Shown: positions 4,305-45,269 of the stretch, in pieces
How the letters are laid out: each line of letters begins with the position of its first letter
Numbering within the stretch: position 1 is the first letter of the stretch
IMG/VR virus record: IMGVR_UViG_3300033148_004880
Location: 1-48,970 of that record
DNA: 48,970 nucleotides
Reading direction: 5' to 3' (one strand)
Origin: a virus
Program-made: the position numbers and the translations under genes
The notes under the pieces: generated by a model
What the model was told of the DNA's origin: nothing
The model's database searches: none
Seen by the model: the letters and a program-made list of their open reading frames with translations, nothing else

Positions 4305-4329
4305 ACTTCGTTCATTAAATGAACATAGT
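4305..4329. repeat. Dispersed 25-bp palindrome, copy 1
   Basis: Left arm ACTTCGTTCA and right arm TGAACATAGT surround TTAAA. It lies between the holin stop codon (which uses the last base) and the ribosome binding site of the minus-strand gene starting at 4295. Confidence 0.9.
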
Positions 4330-4727
4330 TAACTTGTCAGATTGTTTTTCTTCTCATAAGTCCTTGTCGCTGCCAGCCCAAGCAATGCCATCACAAGCGA
4401 GATCGCTTGACCGACTTCGATCGCAGGCATTTCGCGACCAGGAAAGAAGAACTCCAACGTCGGACCAACGATCCATCCCCACGCTAACGCCATCGCACAA
4501 ATCCATCCGATTGCAGGACGCCAGCCAGCAACGAACAACGTGCGGTGACCGGCCTCAATCTCGTTGATTTTTGCCTGCCACTCGTCAGGTTTCTGCTGGA
4601 TCTTCATACGAAGAATCCCAGCAGCCTGCTTTTCCTCCGGTGTCTCGACAAATCGATCGACTGCGTCTGCAATGCCAGTAGCAGCAGAACTAATGCCACC
4701 GCCAAGTAACCAGCTTAAGATTCCCAT
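4329..4727 (-). CDS. Holin of the 3TM / GTA-holin type
   Basis: A 132-residue protein. An N-terminal amphipathic/glycine-rich segment (1-20) is followed by a charged helix, then the WRPAIGWICA signature (69-78) that starts a long hydrophobic segment (about 72-95). A second membrane segment (about 105-121) precedes a basic tail. This matches the 3TM holin family first described for gene-transfer-agent release. It would permeabilise the inner membrane so that the endolysin, whose gene ends 10 bp upstream, reaches the cell wall. AAGGAG lies 6 bp before the ATG. A good assignment based on the WRP motif and context. Confidence 0.85.
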   Translation of the reverse strand: MGILSWLLGGGISSAATGIADAVDRFVETPEEKQAAGILRMKIQQKPDEWQAKINEIEAGHRTLFVAGWRPAIGWICAMALAWGWIVGPTLEFFFPGREMPAIEVGQAISLVMALLGLAATRTYEKKNNLTS

Positions 4728-4737
4728 TTTGGTCTCC

Positions 4738-5175
4738 TTATGGATAAACGATCAAAAGTCCGCGGTAGTTTCTGCAATCTATATGAAGCCAGGTGATTTT
4801 CTTTCTGTGGCTGGACTTCTCAATGCAAGTAATCCAATGAAAATCCTCTCCGGCCTCAATATCTGCCCAGATCTCCTCGACAGTGCACTCAATAGGAACT
4901 AAGTCCAGTGCACGCCCGAAACGGTGCTGAGATCGCTTTGCTCCAACGGCGCACCAAGTAGGTCGCCAGCCACGGAACTGATGATCACCGCCCCACCACC
5001 AAGTATTAGCAACCATCTTGCCATAACGCTCTCTTATTAAGTCCCCAGCTTTCAAAATTCTAGGATCAAAGAGCCACCAGATTTGGTCGAGCTTCTCATT
5101 TCTTTCATAGAGCTTGTAAGTTGCTTTTGGCACTAGTTCGTAAGGCTCGAACCAATTAGGCGTGTAGTCCATCAC
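4738..5175 (-). CDS. Endolysin, peptidase M15 / D-Ala-D-Ala carboxypeptidase-like
   Basis: This 145-residue protein contains SQHRFGRALDL (82-92), the metallopeptidase M15 signature with zinc ligands His84 and Asp91. A second ligand pair follows in WLHID (His131), and E119 is a candidate catalytic acid. There is no signal peptide, so export depends on the neighbouring holin. M15 enzymes cut peptide bonds in peptidoglycan stems (VanY-like or L-Ala-D-Glu peptidase). The start overlaps the terminase small-subunit stop as ATGA, showing translational coupling. Confidence 0.88.
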   Translation of the reverse strand: MMDYTPNWFEPYELVPKATYKLYERNEKLDQIWWLFDPRILKAGDLIRERYGKMVANTWWWGGDHQFRGWRPTWCAVGAKRSQHRFGRALDLVPIECTVEEIWADIEAGEDFHWITCIEKSSHRKKITWLHIDCRNYRGLLIVYP

Positions 5176-5852
5176 TCGGCTTCCACCTCCGTGACCTCAC
5201 CTTCAACAACGAGGCCTGACTTCAATCCATCCTCAACAGCACGTCGCTTGATCTCATCGATTTCGTCGCTCGTGTAATGTCCATGAACGATCGCTCCCTT
5301 GATATTCTGAACTGGGCCGAATCCGGAACGAGCAAGCATAGTATTGGCCTCTTTCGCCCTTAGCCCAATTCCGATAGGGACTCCATCGACCTCACCGCTA
5401 ATTATGTCCTCAAGTAGCTTTAACGACTGCGGAGCGTTCTCACGAATACGTTTGGCCAGGTCGAGTGTCTCGGCGTCACGTGCACCCTTCATGATCTCGA
5501 GCTTCTCACGCACGATCGGAGAGTTACGAGTGTAAGAAACGGTCGCCTCGCTTATGTTGAGATCCTTGGCAATGTTAACTACCTTCTGCCCGATCAAAAG
5601 TCTTCGAACGATCTCATGATGGATCTCCCACATTTGGCTAACCTCAAACGTGCGCTTTTTGTCAGGTGCAACCCTACGCCCATCCGGACCGCGATTGCCG
5701 TTGTAGTACTTCTCCTTCGGTGGCTTTGGCGCGTGGATAAGTTTGGGCTCGTGCCTGGGATTGGACACAAGCTTGGGCTTGAACTCGGGATTCTCGCCAA
5801 GCAAGTTCAGCATCTCATCCATCAGAGCTTTAGTTTCTGTCTCTTGAGCCAC
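5172..5852 (-). CDS. terS: Terminase small subunit-like DNA-binding protein
   Basis: A 226-residue protein starting at GTG 5852, with GGGGAGC upstream. The N-terminus is Pro/Lys rich. Residues about 75-112 hold a helix-turn-helix (IHHEIVRRLL, VVNIAKDLNISEATVSY), followed by a helical segment with REKLEIMKGARDAETLDLAKRI, a layout typical of phage small terminase subunits. The acidic C-terminal tail (EGEVTEVEAE) may contact the large subunit. It would recognise the packaging site and load TerL. Being separated from terL by four genes is unusual but does not weaken the motif evidence. Confidence 0.75.
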   Translation of the reverse strand: MAQETETKALMDEMLNLLGENPEFKPKLVSNPRHEPKLIHAPKPPKEKYYNGNRGPDGRRVAPDKKRTFEVSQMWEIHHEIVRRLLIGQKVVNIAKDLNISEATVSYTRNSPIVREKLEIMKGARDAETLDLAKRIRENAPQSLKLLEDIISGEVDGVPIGIGLRAKEANTMLARSGFGPVQNIKGAIVHGHYTSDEIDEIKRRAVEDGLKSGLVVEGEVTEVEAE

Positions 5853-5864
5853 TTTTGCTCCCCT

Positions 5865-6068
5865 TTAAACCTTCTCCTCGTCAATCTTATGCTCTCCACA
5901 CCAATCGTCAGAGAACAACACTGGCCAGCCCTTCATTGTCGGAGCATGCCGCCTGCAGCGACCAATAATGTGTCCTTCCCACTGCGGAGATCTTGTAAGC
6001 TTCTCGACGAAGTACATACACGTCCCACATCTCATCTTCGTACTTCTATGCTTCCAGTTGTCTTCCAT
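5865..6068 (-). CDS. Small cysteine-rich zinc-binding protein
   Basis: A 67-residue protein with CGTC at residues 14-17 and further Cys/His at GRCRRH and DWCGEH, giving four cysteines placed to bind one zinc. The fold looks like a compact treble-clef or ribbon. It sits just upstream of terS in the first part of the late operon, with GGGAG ahead of the ATG. Function unknown; a nucleic-acid or protein adaptor is a reasonable guess. Confidence 0.75.
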   Translation of the reverse strand: MEDNWKHRSTKMRCGTCMYFVEKLTRSPQWEGHIIGRCRRHAPTMKGWPVLFSDDWCGEHKIDEEKV

Positions 6069-6080
6069 AGTCCGTCTCCC

Positions 6081-6353
6081 TTAATAAATCTTAAAATCGT
6101 TTCGCGCATCATATCGCTTTCCATCTGCTGTCACGAAGGAGTGACAGTCGAGGCCCCTTAACACTTTAACCCTTCTCCAGATCTCACGATTCCTAGTGTT
6201 GACCGCCTTCTCACACAAGACTATGTCCTTCACTGTCACTGGCATGTCAGGCCAAGTTCTTATTGCCTGAAACTCTCCTCCTTCATCCAAGGTAAACGAA
6301 GCAACCTCAGTATTCAAGAGCAGAAACGCTCTTCTTGACATCTTCCACGCCAT
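6081..6353 (-). CDS. First gene of the leftward unit, unknown function
   Basis: This 90-residue protein has mixed alpha/beta character, ending in DGKRYDARNDFKIY, with no known motif. Its ATG at 6353 is preceded by AAAGGGAGA. It is the first gene downstream of a leftward promoter (6380-6424), so it opens the late transcription unit. Early position could mean a regulator, but no DNA-binding motif is visible. Confidence 0.7.
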   Translation of the reverse strand: MAWKMSRRAFLLLNTEVASFTLDEGGEFQAIRTWPDMPVTVKDIVLCEKAVNTRNREIWRRVKVLRGLDCHSFVTADGKRYDARNDFKIY

Positions 6354-6379
6354 AATCTGTCTCCCTTTAAACCTTTCTC

Positions 6380-6424
6380 ATTATACCATGCTTCACTATA
6401 CCACAATCACACGCCAGTTGTCAA
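6380..6424 (-). promoter_or_regulatory. Leftward sigma70-like promoter for the late unit
   Basis: On the minus strand TTGACA (6424-6419) is followed after 18 bp by TATAGT (6400-6395); a second, perfect TATAAT lies at 6385-6380. The first leftward ATG is at 6353. Confidence 0.65.
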
Positions 6425-6517
6425 GTTATTTTTGGGTGGAAACTGGTCTAGATCTTCATTACCATTCATTTGTGGAGGCGCCACACGCCTCGCAAACTAT
6501 CGCCAACCCTGGCCTCT

Positions 6518-6542
6518 TCTTCGTTCATTTTATGAACACAGT
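6518..6542. repeat. Dispersed 25-bp palindrome, copy 2
   Basis: Arms TCTTCGTTCA and TGAACACAGT around TTTTA, midway between the two divergent promoters. The position suits control of both directions. Confidence 0.85.
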
Positions 6543-6713: not shown

Positions 6714-6720
6714 GGAATTG

Positions 6721-7076: not shown

Positions 7077-7418
7077 ATGAAAAAATCCAAGGTTTGTAAG
7101 GTATCCGGAGGCAACCTGCCGGACGGATACGAGGCAAAGATTGACGTCACGATCGATTACAGTGATGTCAGTGAGGAAGTTATCCTTGACTGGGCGACCT
7201 CCCACGTAATCATAAACGTACAACGCGTACTCCGTGGCAAGAGCACAACAGAACTAAACCAGTTGGCGAAGGACGGATACGAAGTTAAGGCTAGTGCTGC
7301 AGGACGTACGACGGTTGACCCTGTCACGGCATACAAAGCTAAATTTAGTGGAATGACCAAGGAAGAGAAACTAGCACAGATCGCCGAACTAGAGGCGATT
7401 GCCGAGCTTGAAGACTAA
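7077..7418 (+). CDS. Early protein with conserved KAKF-GM-EE C-terminal domain (paralogue A)
   Basis: A 113-residue protein. The C-terminal part (VDPVTAYKAKFSGMTKEEKL) matches the second protein encoded at 12556-12933 (SDPVAAFKAKFAAMSPEEQI), and N-terminal strands EAKIDVTIDY and EATIYVDF also align, so they are paralogues. No catalytic motif. It is highly charged and probably a small nucleic-acid- or protein-binding factor; function unknown. The ATG follows GGGAGG. The gene is bracketed by a 13-bp inverted repeat, and its start lies inside a shorter inverted repeat that could mask the ribosome binding site. Confidence 0.8.
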   Translation: MKKSKVCKVSGGNLPDGYEAKIDVTIDYSDVSEEVILDWATSHVIINVQRVLRGKSTTELNQLAKDGYEVKASAAGRTTVDPVTAYKAKFSGMTKEEKLAQIAELEAIAELED

Positions 7419-8168: not shown

Positions 8169-8193
8169 ACTTCGTTCATAAAATGAACATAGT
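8169..8193. repeat. Dispersed 25-bp palindrome, copy 3
   Basis: Arms ACTTCGTTCA and TGAACATAGT around TAAAA; matches the consensus exactly. Lies between the A-run and the G-quadruplex motif. Confidence 0.9.
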
Positions 8194-8361: not shown

Positions 8362-8389
8362 AGTCTAAACAATGAGAAGGGGGTGTATC

Positions 8390-8917
8390 ATGTATCGACA
8401 AGAAGCAAACGACGCAATGGTTCAGACAAGGGTAAAGAGCACCACGCTGGCCACAGTAGCACGATTCTTCGCTCTGAAGGGCGTGATAATAATGAGCAAG
8501 AGCTTCCTCATGCGCCTGGTCTTGGAGCAGTTCGAAGGGATGCTGATCAAAAATGGGCTGACAGAGCGCGTGACGGATATCGTAGACGCACGTAGAATCT
8601 TGACAAAGCTCGGGCTTGAGAATCTGAATCCTGCCGGACGTCTAGGCAGGAACTTTATGGAAGAACAGCAGCGTGCAGTTTACGACTTTGAAGGTTGGGA
8701 TCCTTCGGAGCTGACCGCGCATACAACTAAGGCGAACATAAACAAAGAGGCTGAAGAGATGGAAGAGCTAGCAAAAGATCCAGCGAGACTACTGCAACGC
8801 ATGGAGGAGCACCTAGCTCCACGCGTCGACAAACAGGCCGCACGCTCGAAGGCCGAGCACGACGAGCTTGGCAACGTCAGCGACGTCCCGGTAATAGAAA
8901 AGCCTGAAACTTCCTGA
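8390..8917 (+). CDS. Possible ribbon-helix-helix-like DNA-binding protein
   Basis: A 175-residue protein. The start at 8390 is chosen because GAAGGGGG lies 6 bp upstream and a promoter just before it. Residues about 10-50 (VQTRVKSTTLATVARFFALKG, then SKSFLMRLVLEQF) read as a strand followed by two helices, a pattern seen in ribbon-helix-helix or related small DNA binders; the rest is a long charged helical tail rich in Glu and Lys. It is placed directly beside the origin-like block, so an origin-binding or regulatory role is attractive, but the motif is weak. Confidence 0.75.
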   Translation: MYRQEANDAMVQTRVKSTTLATVARFFALKGVIIMSKSFLMRLVLEQFEGMLIKNGLTERVTDIVDARRILTKLGLENLNPAGRLGRNFMEEQQRAVYDFEGWDPSELTAHTTKANINKEAEEMEELAKDPARLLQRMEEHLAPRVDKQAARSKAEHDELGNVSDVPVIEKPETS

Positions 8918-10372: not shown

Positions 10373-10397
10373 ACTTCGTTCATAAAATGAACATAGT
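10373..10397. repeat. Dispersed 25-bp palindrome, copy 4
   Basis: Exact consensus arms around TAAAA. The right arm runs straight into GGGAGG, the ribosome binding site of the gene at 10409. Confidence 0.9.
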
Positions 10398-10591: not shown

Positions 10592-10791
10592 AAGCATCAG
10601 AAGTCATAGCAGTCCTAAAGCAGTTCCCAGGATGTGAGGTCGTAACCCAAAGTCCAGATGAATACGACGAAGATGGAGAAATAACTAACTACTTAGACAA
10701 CAGTGTGCTAAAATCGAAGGCGTGCTTCGAGTCGGAGGGAGTAGTGTTTATCATCTTTGACAATGAGGAGGTAGAAGTGTACGATGTCTAA
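10588..10791 (+). CDS. Small acidic protein, unknown
   Basis: A 67-residue, strongly acidic protein (DEYDEDGEITNYLD; ends FDNEEVEVYDV). An ATGA overlap with the upstream gene and an 8-bp overlap downstream show tight coupling. Acidic early phage proteins can be DNA mimics or inhibitors, but this is only composition-based speculation. Confidence 0.7.
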   Translation: MKASEVIAVLKQFPGCEVVTQSPDEYDEDGEITNYLDNSVLKSKACFESEGVVFIIFDNEEVEVYDV

Positions 10792-11083
10792 CATGAGCTG
10801 GCATCAACGAGCTATGGACTGCCAACGGCGTCACGCAGTGATCTACCCTGAGTTCGTCAAGGCACGGAAGCGATATGAACGACTTGATCGCTGCTGTACT
10901 TATTGGGCAAATCGCGCACTGGAGGCAGACCGTAGGGCAAAGGAAGAGGAAGGGAACGTCACGTTCGTTCCGGCGGACGAGACGAAAGAAAGTATAAGGA
11001 GGGCCAAGGAAAGGTTCCAGCAAATGTTCGCGAAAATGTCGAAAGACCAGCAAGAAAAGCTGATCGCGGACCTTATGAAATGA
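10784..11083 (+). CDS. Small helical protein, unknown
   Basis: A 99-residue, mostly alpha-helical protein with many Arg, Lys and Glu (ARKRYERLDRCC; ESIRRAKERFQQMF). Starts 8 bp inside the preceding gene, after GAGGTAG. The C-terminal half could form a coiled coil. No known family recognised. Confidence 0.7.
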   Translation: MSNMSWHQRAMDCQRRHAVIYPEFVKARKRYERLDRCCTYWANRALEADRRAKEEEGNVTFVPADETKESIRRAKERFQQMFAKMSKDQQEKLIADLMK

Positions 11084-11610: not shown

Positions 11611-11781
11611 ATGGAAATAATTGCGGACTTAATAGAGTGCCCTAAGTGTGGCAACCGCGCCGTGGAGCTCAAGGGCTATTTGAAGGACAAGTGGCTCGAG
11701 ACCTGTGGCATAGAAGCGTATTGCGACAAGTGTGAGTATTGCTTCTACCCTGACGAAGACACAGAGGACGAAGCCACTTAA
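11611..11781 (+). CDS. 56-residue zinc-binding protein
   Basis: A short frame with CPKCG (10-14) and CDKCEYC (about 38-44), giving two Cys pairs that can hold one zinc, then an acidic tail (YPDEDTEDEAT). GGGAGGTG lies upstream of the ATG. Likely a zinc ribbon; partner unknown. Confidence 0.75.
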   Translation: MEIIADLIECPKCGNRAVELKGYLKDKWLETCGIEAYCDKCEYCFYPDEDTEDEAT

Positions 11782-11824
11782 CTTTCACATTCGCTGCACT
11801 TACCTACAAGAAAGGAGAAGGAAG

Positions 11825-12334
11825 ATGGCAAAGGATCATGAAGTAGAGAAAGTTTGGGAATCAAAGGAGGGACTTACTTGCGTGGTGATAATGACGCGCT
11901 TTGGACATAGATGTGGTTACGTCGGCGTCCCGACCAAGCACCCACTATATGGTAAGGCCTACGACAAGAGCTGCCGTTGCCTAGTGAAGCAGCTGGAACA
12001 GCTCAAGCAAGGACCTATTGGGAAGAGGGGAATCATCCCTGTGGTCTGTTGGGACGGGAAGAAAGCCACACCAGAGATCGTCTTCGACGTTCACGGTGGA
12101 CTCACGTATTCCAGCCGTAAGAAGGGTGATGATCACCCCATTTCGCAACGAGGCACTTGGTGGTTCGGCTACGACTGCGCCCACGCGGGGGACGCCAAGG
12201 ATCTCAGCGTCGCCGATGAAACAATCAGGGAGTTAGAGGCGAGGTTCCCTACTGGTGGAGTGATCAGGACACTCGAGTACTGCGTGGCCGAGTGTGAGAG
12301 TCTGTCCGAGCAGCTTGCAGCTGTTAAGAAATGA
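11825..12334 (+). CDS. Phage protein with GYVGVPxxHPLYG and VHGGLTYS motifs
   Basis: A 169-residue protein. The start at 11825 is taken because AAAGGAGAAGG lies just before it; a longer upstream frame has no site and overlaps the previous gene. Motifs GYVGVPTKHPLYGKAY, DVHGGLTYS and WWFGYDCAHAGDA, then EYCVAECESLSEQL at the end. This pattern is shared by a widespread phage and bacterial family of unknown function. Conserved His, Cys and Asp residues could form a metal or active site. Confidence 0.8.
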   Translation: MAKDHEVEKVWESKEGLTCVVIMTRFGHRCGYVGVPTKHPLYGKAYDKSCRCLVKQLEQLKQGPIGKRGIIPVVCWDGKKATPEIVFDVHGGLTYSSRKKGDDHPISQRGTWWFGYDCAHAGDAKDLSVADETIRELEARFPTGGVIRTLEYCVAECESLSEQLAAVKK

Positions 12335-12340: not shown

Positions 12341-12365
12341 ACTTCGTTCATTTTTTGAACAAAGA
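12341..12365. repeat. Dispersed 25-bp palindrome, copy 5
   Basis: Arms ACTTCGTTCA and TGAACAAAGA around TTTTT. The upstream ATGAAC at the stop codon of the preceding gene can also pair with GTTCAT, followed by a T-run, so this copy may double as a terminator. Confidence 0.85.
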
Positions 12366-12555: not shown

Positions 12556-12933
12556 ATGACAGATACAGAGGTTAAAGCCAAGAAGAAGGTTGGCAACGAA
12601 GACAGAGAAGCTACAATTTATGTAGACTTCGGTGAGGATCTGGAAGACGCCATCACCAAGTTCGGCGAGGGCGTTGTGTTTTCAAACTTCAAAGCCAGTG
12701 CGAAGATCACGGCTCAGGCCGCGATACGGCGCTATCTTGAGGCAGGCAAAACGGCTGAGGAGATTGTCAAACTTATGGCCGCCTGGAAGCCAGGTGTCGC
12801 TATCGAGCGCGTAAGCGATCCAGTCGCCGCCTTCAAGGCCAAATTTGCAGCAATGAGTCCGGAGGAGCAGATTGCTGCTCTGGCAGACTTGAAGAAGGAC
12901 ATCAAGGCTGCCGGAGGTGGAACGGCAGACTAA
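12556..12933 (+). CDS. Early protein with KAKF-AM-EE domain (paralogue B)
   Basis: A 125-residue paralogue of the protein at 7077-7418: shared SDPVAAFKAKFAAMSPEEQI region and an N-terminal strand EATIYVDF. An extra helix segment (IRRYLEAGKTAEEIVKLMA) and an Ala/Gly-rich end are specific to this copy. Both genes stand alone with their own elaborate leaders, suggesting high, regulated expression. Family is common in related uncultured phages but function is unknown. Confidence 0.8.
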   Translation: MTDTEVKAKKKVGNEDREATIYVDFGEDLEDAITKFGEGVVFSNFKASAKITAQAAIRRYLEAGKTAEEIVKLMAAWKPGVAIERVSDPVAAFKAKFAAMSPEEQIAALADLKKDIKAAGGGTAD

Positions 12934-17918: not shown

Positions 17919-18150
17919 TCAGGCCTCCGACCGGGAGGTGGATGAAAGGAGCCACAACGATGGGAGCCGCGCGGCCCGACACTACGGAATACGGGAACGT
18001 CCCATTTTAGTTGGAGGCCTGAGATCACAAGTAGCAGAACGAGTGGGCGGCCAGGTGCTCCTAAATGGCTAGTCGCTACCAAACCTTATTTAAGAGGGAT
18101 GGAGGTCTAGAGGAGTGAATATTGCGACCGGTCTCCCTACCGCCGCCCAC
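17919..18150 (+). ncRNA. Candidate structured RNA, upstream domain
   Basis: No gene in this segment. TCAGGCCTCC (17919-17928) is perfectly complementary to GGAGGCCTGA (18013-18022) and, in competition, its CCTCC to GGAGG (17934-17938). GGGA-ACG-TCCC (17994-18004) followed by ATTTTAG looks like a small terminator. GTGGGCGGC (18043-18051) matches GCCGCCCAC (18142-18150) exactly. Several helices exclude each other, as in attenuators or riboswitch-like elements. Transcription is inferred from the surrounding operon. Confidence 0.55.
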
Positions 18151-18173
18151 TTCGTTCATTTTATGAACATAGT
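18149..18173. repeat. Dispersed 25-bp palindrome, copy 6
   Basis: Exact arms around TTTTA; extended outward by CCC and GGG (18146-18176). The CCCAC arm also pairs with 18043-18047. Confidence 0.9.
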
Positions 18174-18323
18174 GGGTAAGGAAGCCAGTTTTGGACTTCG
18201 GCTGGGGTCAAGGTGGCGAGGGCCAGACGGGAACGTAACAGTACCGTGATACACGAAAGTGCGCTTGGCCGAATCGAATTCCTGAGAGAGCCTCTCGCCA
18301 GGCTAATCTCTTGCCTTACCCAC
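18172..18323 (+). ncRNA. Candidate structured RNA, downstream domain
   Basis: A closing stem of 10 perfect pairs, GTGGGTAAGG (18172-18181) with CCTTACCCAC (18314-18323). Nested inside are TGGCGAG (18214-18220) with CTCGCCA (18294-18300), GGCCA (18221-18225) with TGGCC (18266-18270) and a CAC-GAAA-GTG hairpin (18252-18261). The stems are nested, as in a folded RNA of about 150 nt. Both ends overlap palindrome copies. No resemblance to tRNA, tmRNA or RNase P that I can defend. Confidence 0.55.
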
Positions 18324-18346
18324 TTCATTCATTTTATGAACAAAGA
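18322..18346. repeat. Dispersed 25-bp palindrome, copy 7
   Basis: Arms ACTTCATTCA and TGAACAAAGA around TTTTA, directly before ATGGAGGG, the ribosome binding site of the 18361 gene. Confidence 0.85.
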
Positions 18347-18360: not shown

Positions 18361-18600
18361 ATGGAAACTGAAAAACCTTACCGGCCTCGTCTTTCTATCG
18401 AAATCACAGAGGAACAGAACGCAGACCTCAGGGCTTTAATCCCTTGGGGAGTCAAGAACGCTTTGTTCTCAATTATCATTGACGACGTGATCAAGAAGCT
18501 CAAGACACATGGAACGATGTTCATTAGCGTTGTGTTACAGCGGAAGATCGAACTCGATGACTATGTGGAATTCGAGGTTAAAGAAAATGGCCACGATTGA
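18361..18600 (+). CDS. Small possible ribbon-helix-helix protein
   Basis: A 79-residue protein. RLSIEITEEQNADLRALIPWGVKN reads as a strand plus helix followed by a second helix (FSIIIDDVIKKLKTHG), the size and order of small phage ribbon-helix-helix-like proteins. The ATG at 18361 is used because GGAGGG lies 9 bp upstream; ATG 18346 would overlap the palindrome. A possible regulator acting on its own upstream region. Confidence 0.75.
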   Translation: METEKPYRPRLSIEITEEQNADLRALIPWGVKNALFSIIIDDVIKKLKTHGTMFISVVLQRKIELDDYVEFEVKENGHD

Positions 18601-18802
18601 CAATCTAGGTCTGTCGGTCTCCGAAATGACCGACGAACAGCTCCTTGAGCGCTTGAAAGAAATGCGACACTCACGACGCACACACAAGGCTCCTATCAAG
18701 AGAGCTACAAAGGCCTCAAAACCAGCAGAGCTAAGGGTCAGCAGCCTCACGGGAGACCAGGCACAGAACCTGATAGCTGAACTGGAGGAGATGATGAAAT
18801 GA
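18587..18802 (+). CDS. Small basic protein, unknown
   Basis: A 71-residue protein (MATIDNLGLSVSEMTDEQLL) with a basic middle (RHSRRTHKAPIKRATKASK) and an acidic terminal helix. Overlaps the previous gene by 14 bp and the next by 4. The EMTDEQLLERLKEMR helix recurs in small phage proteins; function unknown. Confidence 0.7.
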   Translation: MATIDNLGLSVSEMTDEQLLERLKEMRHSRRTHKAPIKRATKASKPAELRVSSLTGDQAQNLIAELEEMMK

Positions 18803-19014
18803 AGGTTTACTGCAAGAAGTGCAAATACATCCTCGGACCTCCTCACATGAAGAAGGACGAGTCCTTGTGTTGCGCCACGGAAACACCAATGACACTTGAT
18901 GAATCTGACTGGTATGAAGAAAAACTTATGATCCTTGCTGAAAACAGGGTTTTATGTTCTCAAAGAAACATGCTTAACAACTGTGTATATTATGAGGAGC
19001 AAGATGAGAGTTGA
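18799..19014 (+). CDS. Cysteine-rich small protein
   Basis: A 71-residue protein with CKKC at 5-8, then CC (24-25), and later single cysteines. The first knuckle suggests a zinc ribbon, perhaps using CC as second pair. Overlaps both neighbours. Function unknown. Confidence 0.7.
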   Translation: MKVYCKKCKYILGPPHMKKDESLCCATETPMTLDESDWYEEKLMILAENRVLCSQRNMLNNCVYYEEQDES

Positions 19015-20338
19015 AATTGTAAACATCGATCGCATAACCGTCGCCGATCGACATCGAAAAGACTTAGGAGACCTACATGAACTCGCACGATCAATCAAAG
19101 AAAAAGGGCTTATCCAACCGATCGCGGTCGAAGACACCAGGGACGGAACGTACGCTCTCCTCGCGGGAGGTCGCCGCCTTGAGGCGTGCCGTTTGGCAGA
19201 GATCAGTACAGTCCCTGTTAGAGTCTACGAACCTGGTCTTTCCGACCTGGAACGAAAATCGATTGAACTCGAGGAAAATATTAGGCGCAAGGACCTTGCT
19301 TACCAGGAGGAGGTCAACCTTAAGAGAGATATTCATAATCTCCAAGTTCAGATACAAGGCAAGAAGTATGGTGGCGACCGCACCGACCTCGAGCATGCGC
19401 TGGTTAGTGAAGGTCACTCTATTCGAGATACTGCAGACCTTCTGGGCGAGGCTGTCGGCACCACTTCACAAGACATCAAACTTGCTGAGGCGATGGCGCA
19501 GATGCCTGAGCTCGGCTTGGATAAATGTAAGAACAAGTCGGAGGCATTAAAGCTGCTTAACCGCGTTGAGGAAGTCGCTATCCGTGCTGAACTCGCCTCG
19601 CGGATGGTAGCTGCCACGAAGCGCAAAGACACCAAGCTCGCCGATCTTTATCTAGTTGGAGACTTTTTTGACTTAGTTCAGAAGGTGCCTTCTGGTGTTA
19701 TGGACATCGTGGAAGTTGATCCACCTTACGGTATTGACTTGCCATCCATCAAGGACAACGTCGAGATGAGGCTTGACACTAGCTACACGGAGATTCCCGA
19801 GACGGAATATGTGTCGTTCTTGGAGCGTGTCATCGAAGAGTGTTGGCGGATAATGAACGACCACTCGTGGTTGATCTTCTGGTTCGGGCCTGAGCCGTGG
19901 TTCGAAGTGGTATTTACTATCATCCACCGTCAAGGCTTCAACGTACGCCGCATGCCCGGCATTTGGCTCAAGTCCGGCGTCGGTGGTCAAACTCGCCAGC
20001 CCGATGTTCATCTCGGTAGCGTCTACGAAATGTTTTTCTATGCTTACAAAGGCGACGCAACGATCAATATCAACAAACGTGGCAGATCGAACGCGTTCGA
20101 ATATTCCGTGGTTCCTCCACAATACAAGATTCATAACACGGAACGACCGATTCCATTAATGGAGGATATCTTGTCTACTTTTGCTTATGAGGGCGCACGA
20201 CTTTACGTGCCCTTTTGTGGAAGCGGTAACACGCTTCGTGCAGGATTGAACCTTAACATGTCGCCGATTGGATGCGACATTGGACAGGAGTACAAGGACG
20301 CCTATGTACTTCGGTTGGCAGAGGAGGGGCTGGTATGA
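19004..20338 (+). CDS. ParB/Srx-like domain fused to N6/N4-type DNA methyltransferase
   Basis: A 444-residue protein starting at ATG 19004 behind GAGGAG. Residues 1-110: ParB-like nuclease fold with LAGGRRLEACR (53-63) and ENIRRKDLAYQEE (91-103). Residues 139-160: helix-turn-helix-like segment. C-terminal half: methyltransferase with catalytic DPPYGID (239-245) before the SAM-binding VPFCGSGNT (402-410), the beta-class order. It probably methylates adenine or N4-cytosine at a specific site, protecting phage DNA or marking it. No partner restriction enzyme is present. Such fusions are known in phages; the target is unknown. Confidence 0.88.
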   Translation: MRVEIVNIDRITVADRHRKDLGDLHELARSIKEKGLIQPIAVEDTRDGTYALLAGGRRLEACRLAEISTVPVRVYEPGLSDLERKSIELEENIRRKDLAYQEEVNLKRDIHNLQVQIQGKKYGGDRTDLEHALVSEGHSIRDTADLLGEAVGTTSQDIKLAEAMAQMPELGLDKCKNKSEALKLLNRVEEVAIRAELASRMVAATKRKDTKLADLYLVGDFFDLVQKVPSGVMDIVEVDPPYGIDLPSIKDNVEMRLDTSYTEIPETEYVSFLERVIEECWRIMNDHSWLIFWFGPEPWFEVVFTIIHRQGFNVRRMPGIWLKSGVGGQTRQPDVHLGSVYEMFFYAYKGDATININKRGRSNAFEYSVVPPQYKIHNTERPIPLMEDILSTFAYEGARLYVPFCGSGNTLRAGLNLNMSPIGCDIGQEYKDAYVLRLAEEGLV

Positions 20339-20811: not shown

Positions 20812-21417
20812 ATGAAACCTTGGGACGAATATTTTCTAGGCATCTGCAATCAGGTTGCAGCAAACTCTAAATGTCTGTCACAACGACGCGGCGCGATACT
20901 CGTTCGTGATCGTATCATCATTGCTACAGGCTACAACGGGCCGCCAAGAGGTTTTCGTAGGTGTTCGGACCGTTGGCTGGATTCTTTAGATCCTCTATAC
21001 AACGAGGCAGAAGCACTGCCAAAAGGCAAGATTGCATCGCCCGTCACCTGCCCTCGTCACGCTCTCGGCTTCAAGTCTGGTGAACGCCTTGACCTCTGTC
21101 CTGCCGTACATGCCGAGGTCAATTGCTTAGCTGCTGCAGCCAGGGTGGGAGTGAACGTTCACCATGCTATTATGTACATGAACTGTCAGATTCCTTGCAA
21201 GTGGTGCATGGGCCTTATCATCAACGCTGGCATCGGTACTCTCGTAGTGAGTTCGCTTGAACCCTACGACAAGCTAACGTTGACCTTGGTAAGGGAAACC
21301 AGTGGAAGCCTGACCGTAAGAGATTACGATGGAAACTTCCTGCTCAATCTTAGCACTCCCTTACATCCGGCCGCACATCCACGATACCCAACGACGCATG
21401 AAGGAGACATAGAATGA
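20812..21417 (+). CDS. dCMP deaminase-like zinc enzyme
   Basis: A 201-residue protein. Zinc and catalytic motif HAEVN (H100, E102) and PCKWC (C129, C132), with GYNGPPRGF (40-48) in the usual upstream position. This is the dCMP/ComE deaminase family, making dUMP for dTMP synthesis. An insert (about 50-95) holds extra Cys/His (C51, C80, H83, C96) and may bind a second metal. The C-terminal about 40 residues go beyond the core fold. AAAGGAG upstream. Overlaps the polymerase gene by 4 bp, linking dU metabolism with a polymerase carrying a uracil glycosylase domain. Confidence 0.85.
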   Translation: MKPWDEYFLGICNQVAANSKCLSQRRGAILVRDRIIIATGYNGPPRGFRRCSDRWLDSLDPLYNEAEALPKGKIASPVTCPRHALGFKSGERLDLCPAVHAEVNCLAAAARVGVNVHHAIMYMNCQIPCKWCMGLIINAGIGTLVVSSLEPYDKLTLTLVRETSGSLTVRDYDGNFLLNLSTPLHPAAHPRYPTTHEGDIE

Positions 21418-24299: not shown

Positions 24300-24575
24300 A
24301 TGGGAGACTTGTCACAACTACGAAACCTTTATAGAGGAGGATCTGCTATGATTCTAGGAAACAAAACGCTGATGTGTCCCAACTGTAAGGACGACCCTAT
24401 CATAATCTCGACGAGACTTGGTTGGAATAGTCGAGGTCCCACTATCAGAATCAATCTGACGTGTCCGAACTGTGAGTGGAAAGCTAATAAGGAGATATCA
24501 CTGCTACGAATGATGGAGCGAACCTCACTATGTCCAGCGAACGACACCTCGGAGATTGGATCGAAGGATTTCTAA
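24300..24575 (+). CDS. Small zinc-ribbon protein
   Basis: A 91-residue protein (or 75 from ATG 24348). CPNCKDDPI (from ATG 24300: 25-33) and CPNCEW (about 54-59) give two Cys-x2-Cys pairs. Two starts each have a good site: AGGAAAGGAAGG before 24300 and GAGGAGG before 24348; the latter start shares its leader with the micropeptide at 24053. Overlaps the helicase gene by 46 bp. Confidence 0.75.
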   Translation: MGDLSQLRNLYRGGSAMILGNKTLMCPNCKDDPIIISTRLGWNSRGPTIRINLTCPNCEWKANKEISLLRMMERTSLCPANDTSEIGSKDF

Positions 24576-25810
24576 GATTTACGAACAACACCGAACCCCC
24601 AAGGATGTTCCGTTTGTGGACGGCGATAAGTGTTGTTGCTGCTTGCCTCCAGCGCAAGTGTGTTCTGCACTGGGGCTCACTCGACTTTTATCCTAATATG
24701 TACGTAGTGCTTGTTGCGCCATCTGGCAAGGCTCGCAAGGGAACTGCTATGATACCTGGCCTCAAACTACTGCGTGAGATGGGCGTGAAACTGGCATCAA
24801 ACTCCGTGACACGCCAAGCGTTGATAAGAGACTTGAAGACATCAAATGAGACGGAGGTCGATCCTACCACTGGAACGATGGACATTCACGCGTCGCTAAC
24901 TATATTCAGCAAGGAGCTGACAGTCTTCCTTGGCTATCAAAACAACGAGCTCATGACTGATTTAACAGATTGGTATGACTGCGACGACGATTGGGTCTAT
25001 CGAACTAAGCACGAAGGGGTGGACGACATTAGGGGAGTGTGGGTCAACTTAATTGGAGCGACTACTCCTGATCTTATTCAGTCTGCCATGCCACTGAATG
25101 CTATAGGTGGCGGCCTGACAAGTCGAATGATATTTGTCTACGAGCAACGGAAAGGCAAAATAGTCCACACTCCCTTTTACACACCGGAAGAACTCAAGCT
25201 CCAGGAATTGCTGATGGTTGACTTAGAGCGGATAAGAATGCTCAAAGGGGAGTTCAAGGTGACGCAGCGATTCCTGGAAACTTGGGTCGACTGGTACTCA
25301 GAAGCAGACGCAAGTCCACCGTTCGAAGATCCACGGTTCGCTGGATACTTCGAGCGCCGCCCGACGCACATAATGAAACTGTCAATGATCGTGAACGCCT
25401 CACGTAGTGACTCGATGATGTTGGACAAAGAGGACATCGACAGAGCGATAGAAATCTTGAGGCAGACGGAGGTCAAGATGCGCTATACGTTCAGTGGCGT
25501 CGGCAAATCGTCACTGGCCAACACGCTGTCGCAAGTTATGGCGGAGATCTCGACCAAGAAGGAAATTAAATACGACGAGTTGTTATCACGATTTTATAAT
25601 GACGTTGATAAGTGGGGAATGGATAAGATCATTGAAACGATGAGTGCCATGAACTACATCGACGACATTCCAGTAGCACCAGGCGGGAGGACTATAAGAT
25701 TTAGGGAAGGTGGAGCTAATCCACTTTACATAGAGAGCGAAATGGATAACTTCGTTCAAAAAATGAACATAGTTGGGGAGGAGAAAGACGATGGACAAGA
25801 CGGAGAGTGA
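24530..25810 (+). CDS. DUF3987-type phage helicase / primase-helicase ATPase
   Basis: A 426-residue protein. WTAISVVAACLQRK (30-43) then APSGKARKGTA (63-73) as a P-loop variant, and SNSVTRQALIRDL downstream. This matches DUF3987 proteins, RecA-fold helicases that serve as phage replicative helicases and are sometimes fused to primases. No AEP or TOPRIM primase domain is present here. Positioned next to the polymerase, it is the best replicative helicase candidate. A palindrome copy (25749-25773) lies inside its last codons, encoding NFVQKMNIV. Overlaps the next gene by 20 bp. Confidence 0.85.
   Translation: MSSERHLGDWIEGFLRFTNNTEPPRMFRLWTAISVVAACLQRKCVLHWGSLDFYPNMYVVLVAPSGKARKGTAMIPGLKLLREMGVKLASNSVTRQALIRDLKTSNETEVDPTTGTMDIHASLTIFSKELTVFLGYQNNELMTDLTDWYDCDDDWVYRTKHEGVDDIRGVWVNLIGATTPDLIQSAMPLNAIGGGLTSRMIFVYEQRKGKIVHTPFYTPEELKLQELLMVDLERIRMLKGEFKVTQRFLETWVDWYSEADASPPFEDPRFAGYFERRPTHIMKLSMIVNASRSDSMMLDKEDIDRAIEILRQTEVKMRYTFSGVGKSSLANTLSQVMAEISTKKEIKYDELLSRFYNDVDKWGMDKIIETMSAMNYIDDIPVAPGGRTIRFREGGANPLYIESEMDNFVQKMNIVGEEKDDGQDGE
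25749..25773. repeat. Dispersed 25-bp palindrome, copy 8 (inside coding sequence)
   Basis: Arms ACTTCGTTCA and TGAACATAGT around AAAAA, within the last 20 codons of the helicase gene and directly before GGGGAGGAG of the next gene. Confidence 0.9.
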
Positions 25811-30900: not shown

Positions 30901-31131
30901 AACGGCAGCAGGGCCAGTTACTGGCTTGGTGATAAATGGAGAAGGAGTTATCGGCTTTCCGACAGGGATTCCCAGCAGCTCCCTGGTCTTCATCTCCTCG
31001 GGGGTCGGCCTGGGAAGTAAAGGAGACGAAACCTTCCCAGGCACCTTCTCTTCTAAGCCCAACTGACTTAAAAGAGACCCTCGTGCTTCTTTTCGGGGAC
31101 CGAGATTTAGTTGTTCCAACAAGTCTGGCAT
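27949..31131 (-). CDS. Large internal virion / ejection protein, N-terminal part
   Basis: A 1060-residue protein. Flexible Pro/Lys/Glu-rich N-terminus, hydrophobic helical stretch about 80-215 (AEAIAHLGKGALGY; KTVLGTALELGMFKVIGE), then charged linkers with PEVAPPPAPKPP, a DASEIAKDVKMSEEVVAMAL helix-turn-helix-like piece, and two related LEMGGMQAFYKM / LEIGGFQAMYEA segments. The length and position after tail genes match podovirus internal or ejection proteins. The last residues are cut by a probable frameshift (see 26514-27923). GGAGAAG upstream of the ATG. Confidence 0.8.
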   Translation of the reverse strand: MPDLLEQLNLGPRKEARGSLLSQLGLEEKVPGKVSSPLLPRPTPEEMKTRELLGIPVGKPITPSPFITKPVTGPAAVPVDIAEAIAHLGKGALGYIPSKAEQFERLAVGTAAGLSPEELKAEAAKAGAWLGPGPETTVARSIGEALEPIFRAPQDIINVLTEPRTTADRMFLGFITEDEKADEPLFNISSDTAEKLDLWAKTVLGTALELGMFKVIGEVIRKVVPKKGAKPTVEDLKKVAEEVESKFPSEAEIRAKRLKEEKAPEIAPTAEELAELREYGTADSILERITPKPKAPIKKVSRIPRFKSPEEAIDFGSKATPEQVKRMERLRRDHIKKSEKLRAEDKADEAWPHAMAAQYLKEAIDASTGDLVRGKLKPTEPEVAAEPTPPKVEPVSGVVKSSEEGLVAPKVVKLREKVYDPATGEVLTDFRIKEGPGPHEIDVTLLKGTDLLKYGKYIPVGVWRTMKGKQVIQANWLIEGYNPKTGKWRWIDTATDRAEAQALLNKWKGYMRPEVTPPPEVAPEVAPPPAPKPPKISDQIRTLFNEGKDASEIAKDVKMSEEVVAMALTEMKLSKGRKTVTMKEVEAEAKKILKDSKDLNEVYTRMQELTSRYEENLDAGFADSFELNRYREWGDELMGKIIDTRRKADLVPEPDPEAPISMVTKEGVRETFIDPTDKGGFSSAKVAETYRKLNPEVGEVVENPNAPGQFVFRARPEVTLEMGGMQAFYKMISEAGRRLEERLVREFGKAKTFDEAAYITRSGEYLRRPEGGTHWGVDRHVFGDTAIPGQVARETGMLEAFRYEKGGPINVRAYTRLSEWQRDRLRKLSEEPGEMLMDIYDVKGDPLRVYTKEEMHTFFAHTSPPRSGVALEIGGFQAMYEALAGRLKRRAGEKLTPEVREVLDKGRIIKQRKVKGRIYPPVYEAQLEILKGCRKLDQTTFHRGFENPIRTFEDAGGQAFLDLTVHEYHAREFAIAKMIRKFRRDRKEISKGLKRKERERIMIHAVASEKGGMVKLKHMGYKEADLPKLSPKERAAYDALRARYEAWYTRLNRVRKVSLH

Positions 31132-33449: not shown

Positions 33450-33474
33450 TCTACGTTCATTTTATGAACAAAGT
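33450..33474. repeat. Dispersed 25-bp palindrome, copy 9
   Basis: Arms TCTACGTTCA and TGAACAAAGT around TTTTA. On the minus strand it is followed by GAGGAACC and the ATG at 33441. Confidence 0.85.
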
Positions 33475-39639: not shown

Positions 39640-39664
39640 TCTTTGTTCAAAAAATGAACGAAGT
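39640..39664. repeat. Dispersed 25-bp palindrome, copy 10 (reversed orientation)
   Basis: Arms TCTTTGTTCA and TGAACGAAGT around AAAAA; the only copy whose better-conserved arm is on the right. Overlaps the terminator after the capsid gene. Confidence 0.85.
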
Positions 39665-43802: not shown

Positions 43803-43834
43803 AAGTTTCGCACCTCCTAAAAGTTAGTTGTTAA

Positions 43835-44194
43835 TTACGTAGAATTATCTACCACTAGCCACCACTTCAAACCATCACTGAAAAGCAGCACTCCATCGTC
43901 ATCGGCCGTCAGGGTTTGGTTACTCCAGTCATAGGAATCATCCTGATCCTGGACGGTAACGTTACCACCATCGTCGATTAGATGGACAGCATAGAACTTA
44001 CCAGCTGCTTCTGCAACAGGAGGAAGTGTAACTGTGAACGTGCCATCAGCAGTGTCAGTGTCTACCAGAACCACCTGCTCAAATACTTCCATGGTGTCGG
44101 AAGTATAAGAGGCGGATCTAACCCACTTAGTTACCGAAGTGTCACGTTTCACGAGACCAGCATTCAAGCCAGCCTGTTCCCTTTCGATACTCAT
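43835..44194 (-). CDS. Small decoration-like protein
   Basis: A 119-residue protein. Helical start, then TADGTFTVTLPPVAEAAGKF and GNVTVQDQDDSYDW strands, like capsid cement or tip proteins. GGAGGTG precedes the ATG. Placed between scaffold and the 656-residue structural gene. Confidence 0.7.
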   Translation of the reverse strand: MSIEREQAGLNAGLVKRDTSVTKWVRSASYTSDTMEVFEQVVLVDTDTADGTFTVTLPPVAEAAGKFYAVHLIDDGGNVTVQDQDDSYDWSNQTLTADDDGVLLFSDGLKWWLVVDNST

Positions 44195-44232
44195 ATGAGC
44201 ACCTCCAAATTAAGGTTAACGGTTAATTAAGC

Positions 44233-45225
44233 CTAGTCTCTAGGCATCAAGTCATCAATTTCTTTAGCCATCCCCGTGAGCTTCGCTCTTGCTGGCCCGC
44301 GCCGACGGGAACCTGTAGGATTTGCGAAAGCAGGATCAGGCGGTGCTCCTTGTGGAGTAACTACAGGCCTGCTAGGATCGCTTGCAGGCTTTGGCGGAGG
44401 CTCTGGCAATCCAAGAGCCTTGCGTGTGCGCTTTGCAGCCTCGTCAAAAACCTGCTTCGCCGTCCAGTCAGTATGCTCAGAATGAACCTCGTTAGCAATC
44501 ATCCCGACGGTCCGCTGGACGACCCTCAAATCCTCGTTCTCCTTATAAAAGTCATCGACTAATCCCTTCATCGTATTATAGCGTTGCAACTGAGCAACTA
44601 CGACCTGTGGAATAGCCAGTAATGATCGTTCCTGAGCCAGTGGAATGGCCTGCTCAACGGCCTTTAAGTAAACCTGATTAAGCACCCTGTTGAGCTCAGC
44701 AGGGTCCTCAATTATTCGTTCAATGTCCTCCTGCGTCCGACCTTCCAAGAAGTTAATCTCGTCGACCTTGATCTCAGTCGACGGAGTAACAGCAGGCTTC
44801 GGTTCAGCAGGTGTAGGCTCCCCTGGCTTCGGCTCTGTAGCTGGAGGGACAGGCGCTGCCGTCACTGGCTCACCACCAGAAATCTTCTCAATTCGCTCAA
44901 GTAGAAGCTTGTTCTGCTGTCGGAGCAGTTCTAGCTCAGTCGGAGGAGTTTCCGGAGGTGTTTCCTCCGGAGGTTTTTCCTCCGGTGGTGTCTCAACTGG
45001 AGGTTTCTCCTCAGAAGGCTTCTCTTCAGGTGGAGCCTCTACTGGCGGCTTTTCCTCTGGCGGTTTCTCTTCAGGTGGCTTCTCCTCGGGAGGAGTCTCC
45101 ACAGGCGGAGTTTCCGTCGGAGGAGTTTCTGCCGGTGGTGTTTCCGTCGGAGGGGTCTCCTCAGGTGTTTCCAGAAACGAATTGAGCATTTCCTCAACGT
45201 CTTGTTTTACAACTTTCTCTTCCAT
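44233..45225 (-). CDS. Scaffolding-like protein with P/E/K/T repeats
   Basis: A 330-residue protein. Residues about 18-95 are imperfect repeats of PPTET, PPEEK and PPVETPPEE, then a leucine-rich coiled coil (LELLRQQNKLLLERIEK, 97-113), acidic helices and a basic C-terminus (GSRRRGPARAKLTG) typical of capsid-binding tails of scaffolds. It lies between portal and capsid genes. AAAGGAG precedes the ATG. Confidence 0.8.
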   Translation of the reverse strand: MEEKVVKQDVEEMLNSFLETPEETPPTETPPAETPPTETPPVETPPEEKPPEEKPPEEKPPVEAPPEEKPSEEKPPVETPPEEKPPEETPPETPPTELELLRQQNKLLLERIEKISGGEPVTAAPVPPATEPKPGEPTPAEPKPAVTPSTEIKVDEINFLEGRTQEDIERIIEDPAELNRVLNQVYLKAVEQAIPLAQERSLLAIPQVVVAQLQRYNTMKGLVDDFYKENEDLRVVQRTVGMIANEVHSEHTDWTAKQVFDEAAKRTRKALGLPEPPPKPASDPSRPVVTPQGAPPDPAFANPTGSRRRGPARAKLTGMAKEIDDLMPRD

Positions 45226-45244
45226 AATAACTCTCCTTTGTTAA

Positions 45245-45269
45245 ACTTCGTTCATAAAATGAACATAGT
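45245..45269. repeat. Dispersed 25-bp palindrome, copy 11
   Basis: Exact consensus arms around TAAAA, between the 93-residue gene and the ribosome binding site of the scaffold gene. Confidence 0.9.

What the first reader, a model, noticed from the sequence alone, without database searches (positions are those of the whole stretch)
4305..45269. A 25-bp palindrome dispersed 11 times, mostly next to ribosome binding sites
Copies start at 4305, 6518, 8169, 10373, 12341, 18149, 18322, 25749, 33450, 39640 and 45245. Arms are ACTTCGTTCA and TGAACATAGT around five A/T bases. Ten copies share the same orientation on the plus strand whichever way the neighbouring gene runs, which favours a double-stranded DNA site over an RNA signal. 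Seven copies directly precede a Shine-Dalgarno; the other four lie in the four long non-coding blocks. The gaps are about 2 kb from 4.3 to 12.3 kb and 5.6-8.0 kb elsewhere, rather regular round the circle. Known parallels: stoperators of mycobacteriophage L5 and the start-associated/ESAS repeats of cluster K phages. The sequence here matches neither.
Basis: partly seen in the sequence, partly recalled or inferred. Interest (0 to 1): 0.82.

Follow-up and report, generated by a model that had tools for sequence, protein, structure and literature searches.

The report
Evenly spaced docking sites, phage ParB-methyltransferase
A bacterial virus carries the same 25-letter palindrome at eleven evenly spread places, and sequence evidence from dozens of relatives suggests these are docking sites for the virus's own fusion of a ParB-type DNA clamp with a DNA-methylating enzyme, a pairing whose DNA targets appear to be unreported.

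Summary
The 11 copies are real (none in 100 shuffles). In relatives the same kind of palindrome is rewritten lineage by lineage: 258 sites in 18 phage contigs, 5-22 each.

The letters follow one residue of one protein: the first recognition-helix residue (151) of the phage's ParB_N-HTH-N6/N4-methyltransferase fusion (window 19004-20338). Over 82 lineages His goes with G at motif position 7 (13 of 15), Arg with G (3 of 3), Gln with A (4 of 4), nearly all others with T. Predictions written beforehand held in 17 of 18 new lineages. By helix-turn-helix register this is ParB R173/Noc Q, known to read G versus A.

The Shine-Dalgarno link is mainly packing: sites fill short intergenic gaps, do not favour starts over stops in long gaps, and occur in 10 of 15 convergent gaps. 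They are spaced more evenly than chance. No ParA or tyrosine integrase passed its cut-off in 21 contigs.

Best reading: parS-like loading stations that spread a ParB-type clamp, with its methyltransferase, over the whole genome. Recognition is well supported; sliding and methylation are inferred.

The parts
4305..4329 (+). 25-bp palindromic site, copy 1
6518..6542 (+). 25-bp palindromic site, copy 2 (2 mismatches)
8169..8193 (+). 25-bp palindromic site, copy 3
10373..10397 (+). 25-bp palindromic site, copy 4
12341..12365 (+). 25-bp palindromic site, copy 5 (2 mismatches), 6 nt after the stop codon of ORF 11732-12334
18149..18173 (+). 25-bp palindromic site, copy 6
18322..18346 (+). 25-bp palindromic site, copy 7 (3 mismatches), 14 nt before the ribbon-helix-helix-like gene
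25749..25773 (+). 25-bp palindromic site, copy 8; the only copy lying wholly inside a called gene (3' end of the primase-like gene 24530-25810)
33450..33474 (.). 25-bp palindromic site, copy 9 (3 mismatches on either strand)
39640..39664 (-). 25-bp palindromic site, copy 10 (2 mismatches)
45245..45269 (+). 25-bp palindromic site, copy 11
19004..20338 (+). gene of the predicted site-binding protein, 444 aa: ParB_N + HTH + N6/N4 DNA methyltransferase
   Evidence: Pfam ParB_N 1.6e-13, N6_N4_Mtase 7.1e-17; model pLDDT 82.9; coupling to the motif
19016..19282 (+). ParB_N domain (residues 5-93) with the NTP-binding motif residues G-x-R-R (55-58) and E-N-x-x-R (91-95)
   Evidence: G55, R57, R58 in 135 of 135 rows, E91 and N92 in 136 of 136, R95 in 133 of 136
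19421..19501 (+). helix-turn-helix (residues 140-166); codon of residue 151, first residue of the recognition helix, at 19454-19456
   Evidence: helices 140-147 and 151-166 in the model; coupling columns 174/175 of the longer ORF = residues 151/152
19703..20302 (+). N6/N4 methyltransferase domain (residues 234-433) with DPPY and F-x-G-S-G
   Evidence: DPPY residues each in 136-138 of 138 rows, G406 and G408 in 135 of 135
18361..18600 (+). ribbon-helix-helix-like small protein, syntenic partner; role unknown
   Evidence: in 106 of 106 lineages, which were defined by this hit; fold assignment is mine, from the sequence
18587..18802 (+). second small syntenic partner protein; role unknown
   Evidence: family found in 106 of 106 lineages; start chosen by comparison with the G001 homologue

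Best explanation
The 25-bp palindromes are parS-like target sites of the phage's own ParB-family protein, a fusion of a ParB nucleotide-binding domain, a helix-turn-helix (HTH) and a beta-class N6-adenine/N4-cytosine DNA methyltransferase (window 19004-20338). The HTH reads the inner half-sites; its first recognition-helix residue faces motif position 7. I infer that, as in ParB, Noc and KorB, nucleotide binding lets the dimer close around DNA at a site and slide away; that the methyltransferase (which replaces the usual ParB C-terminal dimerisation domain) travels with it; and that some 5-22 evenly spaced stations let it cover, and probably methylate, the whole phage genome during lytic growth. 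Supported by comparison: the site family, its lineage-wise rewriting, the protein-DNA code, even spacing, intergenic placement, conserved NTP and methyltransferase motifs. Inferred: dimerisation through the methyltransferase, sliding, methylation as the output. My confidence is about 0.9 that this protein reads the sites, 0.55 for genome coverage by a clamp, 0.45 for methylation as the output.
For: Code: of 2056 columns in 10 protein families, residues 151 and 152 rank 1st and 6th by summed excess mutual information with motif positions 6-9. Fisher tests in 64 lineages: His x G7 p=1.1e-7, Asp x A5A6 p=8e-7, Gln x A7 p=0.003 (not corrected for ancestry). Held-out test: 17 of 18 new lineages agree with predictions written. 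Over 82 lineages: H 13G/2T, R 3G, Q 4A, K 28T/1G, P 13T/1A, V 4T/1A, D 5T, seven others T. On a tree without the HTH columns, independent pairs mostly go 5 same/0 opposite/1 no change (H/R with G) and 4/0/0 (Q with A). Independent knowledge: ParB R173 contacts guanine 1, Noc Q adenine 1 (PMC7383237, passages and one section). Coverage: sites more even than the random mean in 18 of 18 contigs (combined p 5e-12 uniform, 2e-21 intergenic slots), 3e-27 against length-weighted slots, while the longest intergenic regions are not even (p 0.99). 182 of 258 sites intergenic against 23.1 expected; 10 of 15 convergent gaps bear one. Domains and conserved motifs.
Against: No binding, clamp or methylation experiment exists. 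Whole-protein distances do not single this protein out: partial r 0.43 overall and 0.40 in motif group I, but primase has 0.42 and 0.36, p12556 0.47 and 0.44, and in group II it has 0.07 against primase 0.51. In the MI scans columns of other families rank as high or higher in places. Exceptions to the code: His with T (L102, L063), Lys with G (L172), Val with A (G008), Pro with A (L132). The tree pairs are too few for p<0.05. The outer arms (positions 1-5) have no identified reader; L137 and L173 mix types. Not all relatives show the motif: two copies or more in 69 of 106 lineages and 19 of 32 new ones; some without it are loci over 20 kb. Alignment of the HTH with Noc is ambiguous by pairwise score (23 of 82 in register), and the Foldseek matches to ParB/Noc cover both domains only loosely (rmsd 8-15 A). 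Fusions of the ParB fold to bacterial SAM-dependent methyltransferases bound ATP, not CTP (PMC12704722, passages).
Confidence: 0.62

Rival explanations
1. KorB-like global transcription regulator: the same ParB-HTH-methyltransferase binds the sites, but its job is to repress (or activate) about ten phage operons from operators near gene starts, with a partner such as the ribbon-helix-helix-like protein acting like KorA.
For: KorB is a ParB-family CTPase clamp that silences plasmid promoters up to 1.5 kb away with KorA as lock (PMC11790492, abstract); 159 of 258 sites lie within 100 nt of a start against 44.0 expected; a site lies within 250 nt upstream of the ribbon-helix-helix-like gene in 8 of 17 contigs and of the family of window ORF 32458 in 10 of 18.
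Against: Sites are as common in convergent gaps (10 of 15) as in divergent ones (9 of 15), and in long co-directional gaps are no nearer to starts (20 of 67 within 30 nt) than to stops (22 of 67); no -35/-10 element at a fixed offset in 129 oriented sites, though the hosts' promoters are unknown; even spacing. A methyltransferase whose key residues are near-invariant in 135-138 rows would be unexplained.
Confidence: 0.2
2. Genome organisation or segregation: a ParB-type complex that condenses or protects the phage DNA, or passes it to replication or packaging, with the methyltransferase only a dimerisation domain.
For: ParB-type architecture; even spread of sites.
Against: No ParA homologue above the family cut-off in 21 contigs; the DPPY and F-x-G-S-G residues are near-invariant, so catalysis appears to be selected.
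Confidence: 0.1
3. Stoperator-like transcription roadblocks bound by an immunity repressor, as in mycobacteriophage L5 relatives.
For: Dispersed sites distributed across the phage genome, as described for stoperators (abstract); lineage-specific letters (the parallel with cluster A is recalled).
Against: Sites are palindromic, not asymmetric; no tyrosine integrase in any of 21 contigs (serine integrases not searched); the pink-berry phages, among them the related Desulfofustis phage, were predicted strictly lytic (PMC10370329, passages); the letters follow a ParB HTH.
Confidence: 0.04
4. RNA hairpins in 5' leaders controlling translation or mRNA stability.
For: Palindromes next to start codons in seven of eleven window copies.
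Against: Letters, not just pairing, are kept within each genome and change with an HTH residue; in long co-directional gaps 47 of 67 sites are more than 30 nt from the start, and sites lie in convergent gaps.
Confidence: 0.03

Closest known systems
Phage ParB-CTPase-fold fusions with N6_N4 methyltransferase (PF02195 + PF01555), surveyed in PMC12704722
   Same: Same domain pair; the survey says such fusions are frequent in phages (passages)
   Different: The passages I read give no DNA target and suggest perhaps anti-defence; here target sites, a recognition code and their even spacing are proposed
KorB of plasmid RK2
   Same: ParB-family protein with HTH; dispersed palindromic operators (about 12, recalled)
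   Different: 25-bp rather than 13-bp site (recalled); methyltransferase instead of the usual C-terminal domain; sites not clearly promoter-linked; no KorA homologue looked for
ParB-parS and Noc-NBS
   Same: Palindromic site read by an HTH; same helix position decides G versus A
   Different: No ParA found; sites spread evenly over a phage genome; longer site with outer arms
Stoperators of cluster A mycobacteriophages
   Same: Many dispersed sites; lineage-specific letters (recalled)
   Different: Asymmetric site of a monomeric immunity repressor (abstract)
SAS/ESAS repeats of cluster K mycobacteriophages
   Same: Copies near translation starts, 11-19 per genome (passages)
   Different: 13-bp asymmetric repeat, plus 17-bp inverted repeats with a variable 4-13 bp spacer; here a 25-bp palindrome not tied to starts

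Membership tests
Phage ParB_N-N6_N4 methyltransferase fusions | PF02195 and PF01555 in one protein | tested here: met
   window protein 1.6e-13 and 7.1e-17, both over cut-off
ParB/KorB-type CTPase clamp | NTP-binding motifs G-x-R-R and E-N-x-x-R | tested here: met
   135 of 135 and 133-136 of 136 rows
ParB/KorB-type CTPase clamp | central HTH that reads a palindromic site | tested here: met
   HTH in model; residue-base code; indirect, no binding data
ParB/KorB-type CTPase clamp | C-terminal ParB dimerisation domain | tested here: not met
   residues 234-433 are a methyltransferase
ParB/KorB-type CTPase clamp | CTP-dependent closing and sliding | not testable with these tools
   needs biochemistry
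ParABS partition system | ParA ATPase partner | tested here: not met
   AAA_31 over cut-off in 0 of 16 and 0 of 5 contigs; one weak hit below cut-off in G018; contigs may be incomplete
KorB regulon of RK2 | operators that act on promoters | tested here: inconclusive
   convergent gaps 10 of 15, no fixed -35/-10; KorB can act from a distance and host promoters are unknown
KorB regulon of RK2 | KorA clamp-locking partner | not tested
   the ribbon-helix-helix-like neighbour is only a candidate
Stoperators | asymmetric site | tested here: not met
   25-bp palindrome
Stoperators | temperate phage with immunity repressor | tested here: inconclusive
   no tyrosine integrase in 21 contigs; serine integrases and repressors not searched by family
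SAS/ESAS | tied to translation starts | tested here: not met
   in long co-directional gaps 20 of 67 near a start, 22 of 67 near the upstream stop
SAS/ESAS | 13-bp asymmetric repeat, inverted repeats with variable spacer | tested here: not met
   25-bp odd palindrome in the window and in the relatives scanned with both parities, except one locus with an even 24-bp form, L081; from then on the detector looked only for the odd 25-bp form

The most novel reading that the evidence does not exclude
A nucleotide-gated sliding-clamp DNA methyltransferase: it loads only at phage-specific, evenly spaced 25-bp stations, then slides and methylates the whole phage genome, so that a lytic phage marks its own DNA (and not the host's) by where the enzyme is loaded rather than by the methylation motif. 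Each lineage has its own private code.
Probability: 0.4. Interest if true: 0.9.

Novelty: new variant of a known kind. Interest (0 to 1): 0.76.

Why it matters
ParB-methyltransferase fusions are known from phages, but what they do and where on DNA they act is open (PMC12704722, passages; the listings of my searches showed no report of their sites). If right, this gives them targets, a readable one-residue-to-one-base code across dozens of natural lineages, and a testable mechanism linking the ParB clamp to DNA modification. It would extend CTP/NTP-switch clamps from segregation and silencing to an enzyme delivered along DNA, and it is a natural data set on how a DNA-binding protein and all of its sites change letters together.

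Tried and rejected
It is in all 106 lineages, but its strand residues (mostly R-S-E/D; G014 and G008 differ) largely stay the same while the site changes GTTCA to GGGGA, GGTAA and others, and its best column ranks were 45, 11 and 49 at motif positions 7-9 in group I. In group II RHH columns ranked 6th and 7th at position 7. Rejected as reader of the inner letters; a role in the outer arms is not excluded.

The HTH protein at 14130 and the RHH-like protein at 8372: too rare (6 and 20 of 106 lineages).

Whole-protein partial Mantel tests were not decisive. A promoter at a fixed distance from the sites: not found; I take the TATAAT-like counts at offsets 6-14 to be the palindrome itself. Uniform orientation: only in the window and, weakly, G019 (p 0.031); not overall. 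Reader of outer positions 2-3: not found. More distant phages (Vibrio VS-ABTNL-3, Microcystis Mel-JY34, Caulobacter Kuura, ctMlz233) and lambda: no repeated 25-bp palindrome; N15 gave 3 weak copies, about the level of shuffled loci (null). GTDB genome contigs: 15 loci; clear motifs in two (L347 with 2 copies, L351 with 10), both Lys with T7; L344 and L345 gave AT-rich or off-register motifs and were not counted; 11 gave none. Several are 42-50 kb contigs that look like whole phages in metagenome bins, so hosts are uncertain. Folding the N-terminal 205 residues alone gave a poor model (pLDDT 55.8), not used. A profile of the HTH region alone gave only weak hits, best HigA antitoxin, E 0.12. In the structural second look the methyltransferase domain filled the list, so it says nothing on ParB.

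Rows dropped or replaced before counts: L169 and L071 (low-complexity motifs) and L104 and L090 (two copies) before the 65-lineage analysis; there the automatic motif of the window (a Shine-Dalgarno-like repeat) was replaced by the 11 known sites, and the motifs of G001, G005 (with G006), G008, G014 and OP947158 by the site lists. L228 was dropped from the held-out set (same contig as L080), and one row short of residues from the tree (82 of 83). L302 and L305 in the held-out set are close relatives and not independent; L267 and L293 have two copies only; the L251 motif is AT-rich and doubtful. Sites were found by an iterated matrix with a fixed cut-off; G008 (17 sites) was trained on 4 copies, and single sites in G001 (12589) and G005 (14806) lie in coding sequence and are doubtful. 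Shuffles kept base composition in 100-base blocks only, and used 60 of 106 lineages. Genes were called with a home-made script.


Full report
What is there. The 11 copies are at the stated places and are not chance (11 places, expected 0.00 in 100 shuffles). The window is a virus record of 48,970 bases of a tailed phage: terminase, major head protein, primase, DNA polymerase, and a portal protein by likeness to an annotated phage. The polymerase has an N-terminal extension that I read as uracil-DNA-glycosylase-like. There is no tRNA gene.

The site is a family, not a sequence. A near relative (G001, 44 kb) has nine copies of the same motif. A palindrome scan of more distant relatives found the same 25-bp odd architecture with other letters: for example CCTTYGGTAAATWATTTACCRAAGG (9 copies, G014) and GCTATGTCCCAAATTGGGACATAGY (9 copies, Desulfofustis phage LS06-2018-MD01, OP947158). 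Searches with portal, ParB-methyltransferase and DNA polymerase (the last two capped at 80) gave 166 loci, overlapping pieces of the same contigs included. Loci held at that point, grouped by a syntenic small protein, form 106 lineages; 63 showed three or more copies, against 1 of 60 shuffled loci. After refinement 69 of 106 had two or more; 37 had none, many on short pieces but some on loci over 20 kb. Two motif groups differ in the outer arms (nCTWTG and AGWYYG), with a varied inner half-site at positions 7-10. One locus (L081) showed an even, 24-bp form.

Which protein reads it. I first suspected the ribbon-helix-helix-like protein next to the ParB-methyltransferase gene. It is universal in the set, but its strand residues largely do not change with the site. 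I then compared motif letters with the well-filled columns of ten protein families in 65 lineages. The two columns with the strongest joint signal for positions 6-9 were residues 151 and 152 of the ParB-methyltransferase: rank 1 and 6 of 2056 by excess mutual information, rank 3 and 1 after correction. Within motif group I residue 151 ranks 2 of 1168 for position 7; within group II it ranks 1 of 2151 for position 6. Columns of other families also rank high, as expected from shared ancestry, and for some motif positions (7 and 8 in group II) residue 151 ranks poorly (246 and 320), so the rank alone is not proof.

Test on new data. I wrote down predictions: His gives G7, Gln A7, Asp A5A6, others T7. 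Two further searches gave 108 new loci and 32 distinct new lineages, 19 with a motif; one (L228) was dropped as the same contig as an earlier locus. Of the remaining 18, 17 agree (His 3 of 3, Gln 2 of 2, others 12 of 13). The one miss is Arg with G7 (L231), which matches two Arg-G7 cases already in the first set (L105, L193). No Asp lineage remained to test. All 82 lineages together: H 13G/2T, R 3G, Q 4A, K 28T/1G, P 13T/1A, V 4T/1A, D 5T, and seven others (S, I, F, C, G one each, T two) all T. On a tree built without the HTH columns, H/R changed 8 times and G7 9 times; on well supported branches independent pairs were mostly 5 same, 0 opposite, 1 no change; for Gln and A7 mostly 4, 0, 0; for Asp and A5A6 2, 0, 1. 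These are too few pairs for formal significance.

Why that residue. The AlphaFold2 model (mean pLDDT 82.9) has helices 140-147 and 151-166, which I take as the HTH, so residue 151 opens the recognition helix. Foldseek finds Noc and ParB (7nfu, 7ol9, 7bm8; loose over two domains) and, more strongly, beta-class methyltransferases (CcrM 6pbd, MboIIA 1g60); a profile search finds Noc, Spo0J, ParB and, weakly, KorB. In Caulobacter ParB the residues G170, K171, S172 and R173 contact DNA; R173 bonds guanine 1, and Noc has Gln there with adenine 1 (PMC7383237, passages and one section). Counting from the conserved glycine, residue 151 is the same place. This rests on HTH register: automatic pairwise alignment with Noc put them together in only 23 of 82 cases, and the profile alignment did not align the HTHs in register. 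The phage code (Arg or His with G, Gln with A) is nevertheless what that work would predict.

Where the sites are. In 18 phage contigs (834,442 bases) there are 258 sites: 182 intergenic against 23.1 expected, and 159 within 100 nt of a start against 44.0. The peak at 10-19 nt before start codons looks like a translation signal, but one search shows how it arises: in short co-directional gaps (100 sites, median gap 40 nt) the site fills the gap, at medians beginning 1 nt after a stop and ending 14 nt before a start. In long gaps (67 sites) 20 are within 30 nt of the start and 22 within 30 nt of the upstream stop (13.7 expected each). Ten of 15 convergent gaps, where no promoter is expected, carry a site; 9 of 15 divergent ones do. 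No promoter element lies at a fixed distance (129 oriented sites).

Even spacing. In all 18 contigs the sites are more even than the mean of random placement; combined p 5e-12 against uniform and 2e-21 against random intergenic slots, 3e-27 against length-weighted slots. The equally many longest intergenic regions are not even (p 0.99). Single contigs are modest: the window alone gives p 0.04 and 0.033, and G016 is not significant. Positions are only partly shared: at most 10 of 17-18 contigs have a site before the same gene family.

What it most likely does. The protein keeps its NTP-binding motif residues (G55, R57, R58 in 135 of 135 rows; R95 in 133 of 136) and its methyltransferase residues (DPPY each in 136-138 of 138; G406 and G408 in 135 of 135). 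No ParA homologue passes its cut-off and no tyrosine integrase was found in 21 contigs; the phages of the study that includes the Desulfofustis relative were predicted lytic (PMC10370329, passages). A partition or lysogeny role is therefore unlikely. KorB, a ParB relative, loads at operators and slides up to 1.5 kb (PMC11790492, abstract). Evenly spread stations without clear promoter linkage fit a clamp that must cover the whole genome, and the attached enzyme suggests that what it spreads is methylation. Sliding and methylation are inference. KorB-like regulation remains the main rival.

Known and new. The fusion is known from domain surveys; a 2025 survey reports that phage ParB folds are often fused to N6_N4 methyltransferases and suggests perhaps anti-defence (PMC12704722, passages). 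I saw no report of target sites in the listings of my searches (open-access papers only). I rate this a new variant of a known kind.

Noticed in passing
window 7077-7418, 10784-11083, 12556-12933, 18587-18802: Several small proteins share a C-terminal motif like MTxEQxxxLIAELEEM (by eye), which could bind a common partner.
   Followed up: no
window 26514-27923 and 27949-31131 (minus strand): Two ORFs in the window both match one long ORF of G001 (from 6408); the gene is interrupted in the window or its assembly.
   Followed up: no
window 104-203 and 48389-48488: Similar 100-nt stretches (76%) near the two ends; the record may end inside a repeat-rich gene, so it may be a cut or permuted genome.
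   Followed up: no
window 44939-45178: 15-nt tandem repeat array coding a Pro/Glu-rich repeat in the 44233-45225 protein, the gene that follows site 45245.
   Followed up: no
window 8372-8917: A second ribbon-helix-helix-like protein (my reading), found in 20 of 106 lineages, downstream of site 8169.
   Followed up: partly
window 21414-23876: DNA polymerase A with an N-terminal extension that looks like a uracil-DNA glycosylase domain (my reading).
   Followed up: no
window 24684-24708; G001 12589; G005 14806: A degenerate copy (5-6 mismatches) inside the primase-like gene, at matching places in three relatives; probably coding conservation.
   Followed up: partly
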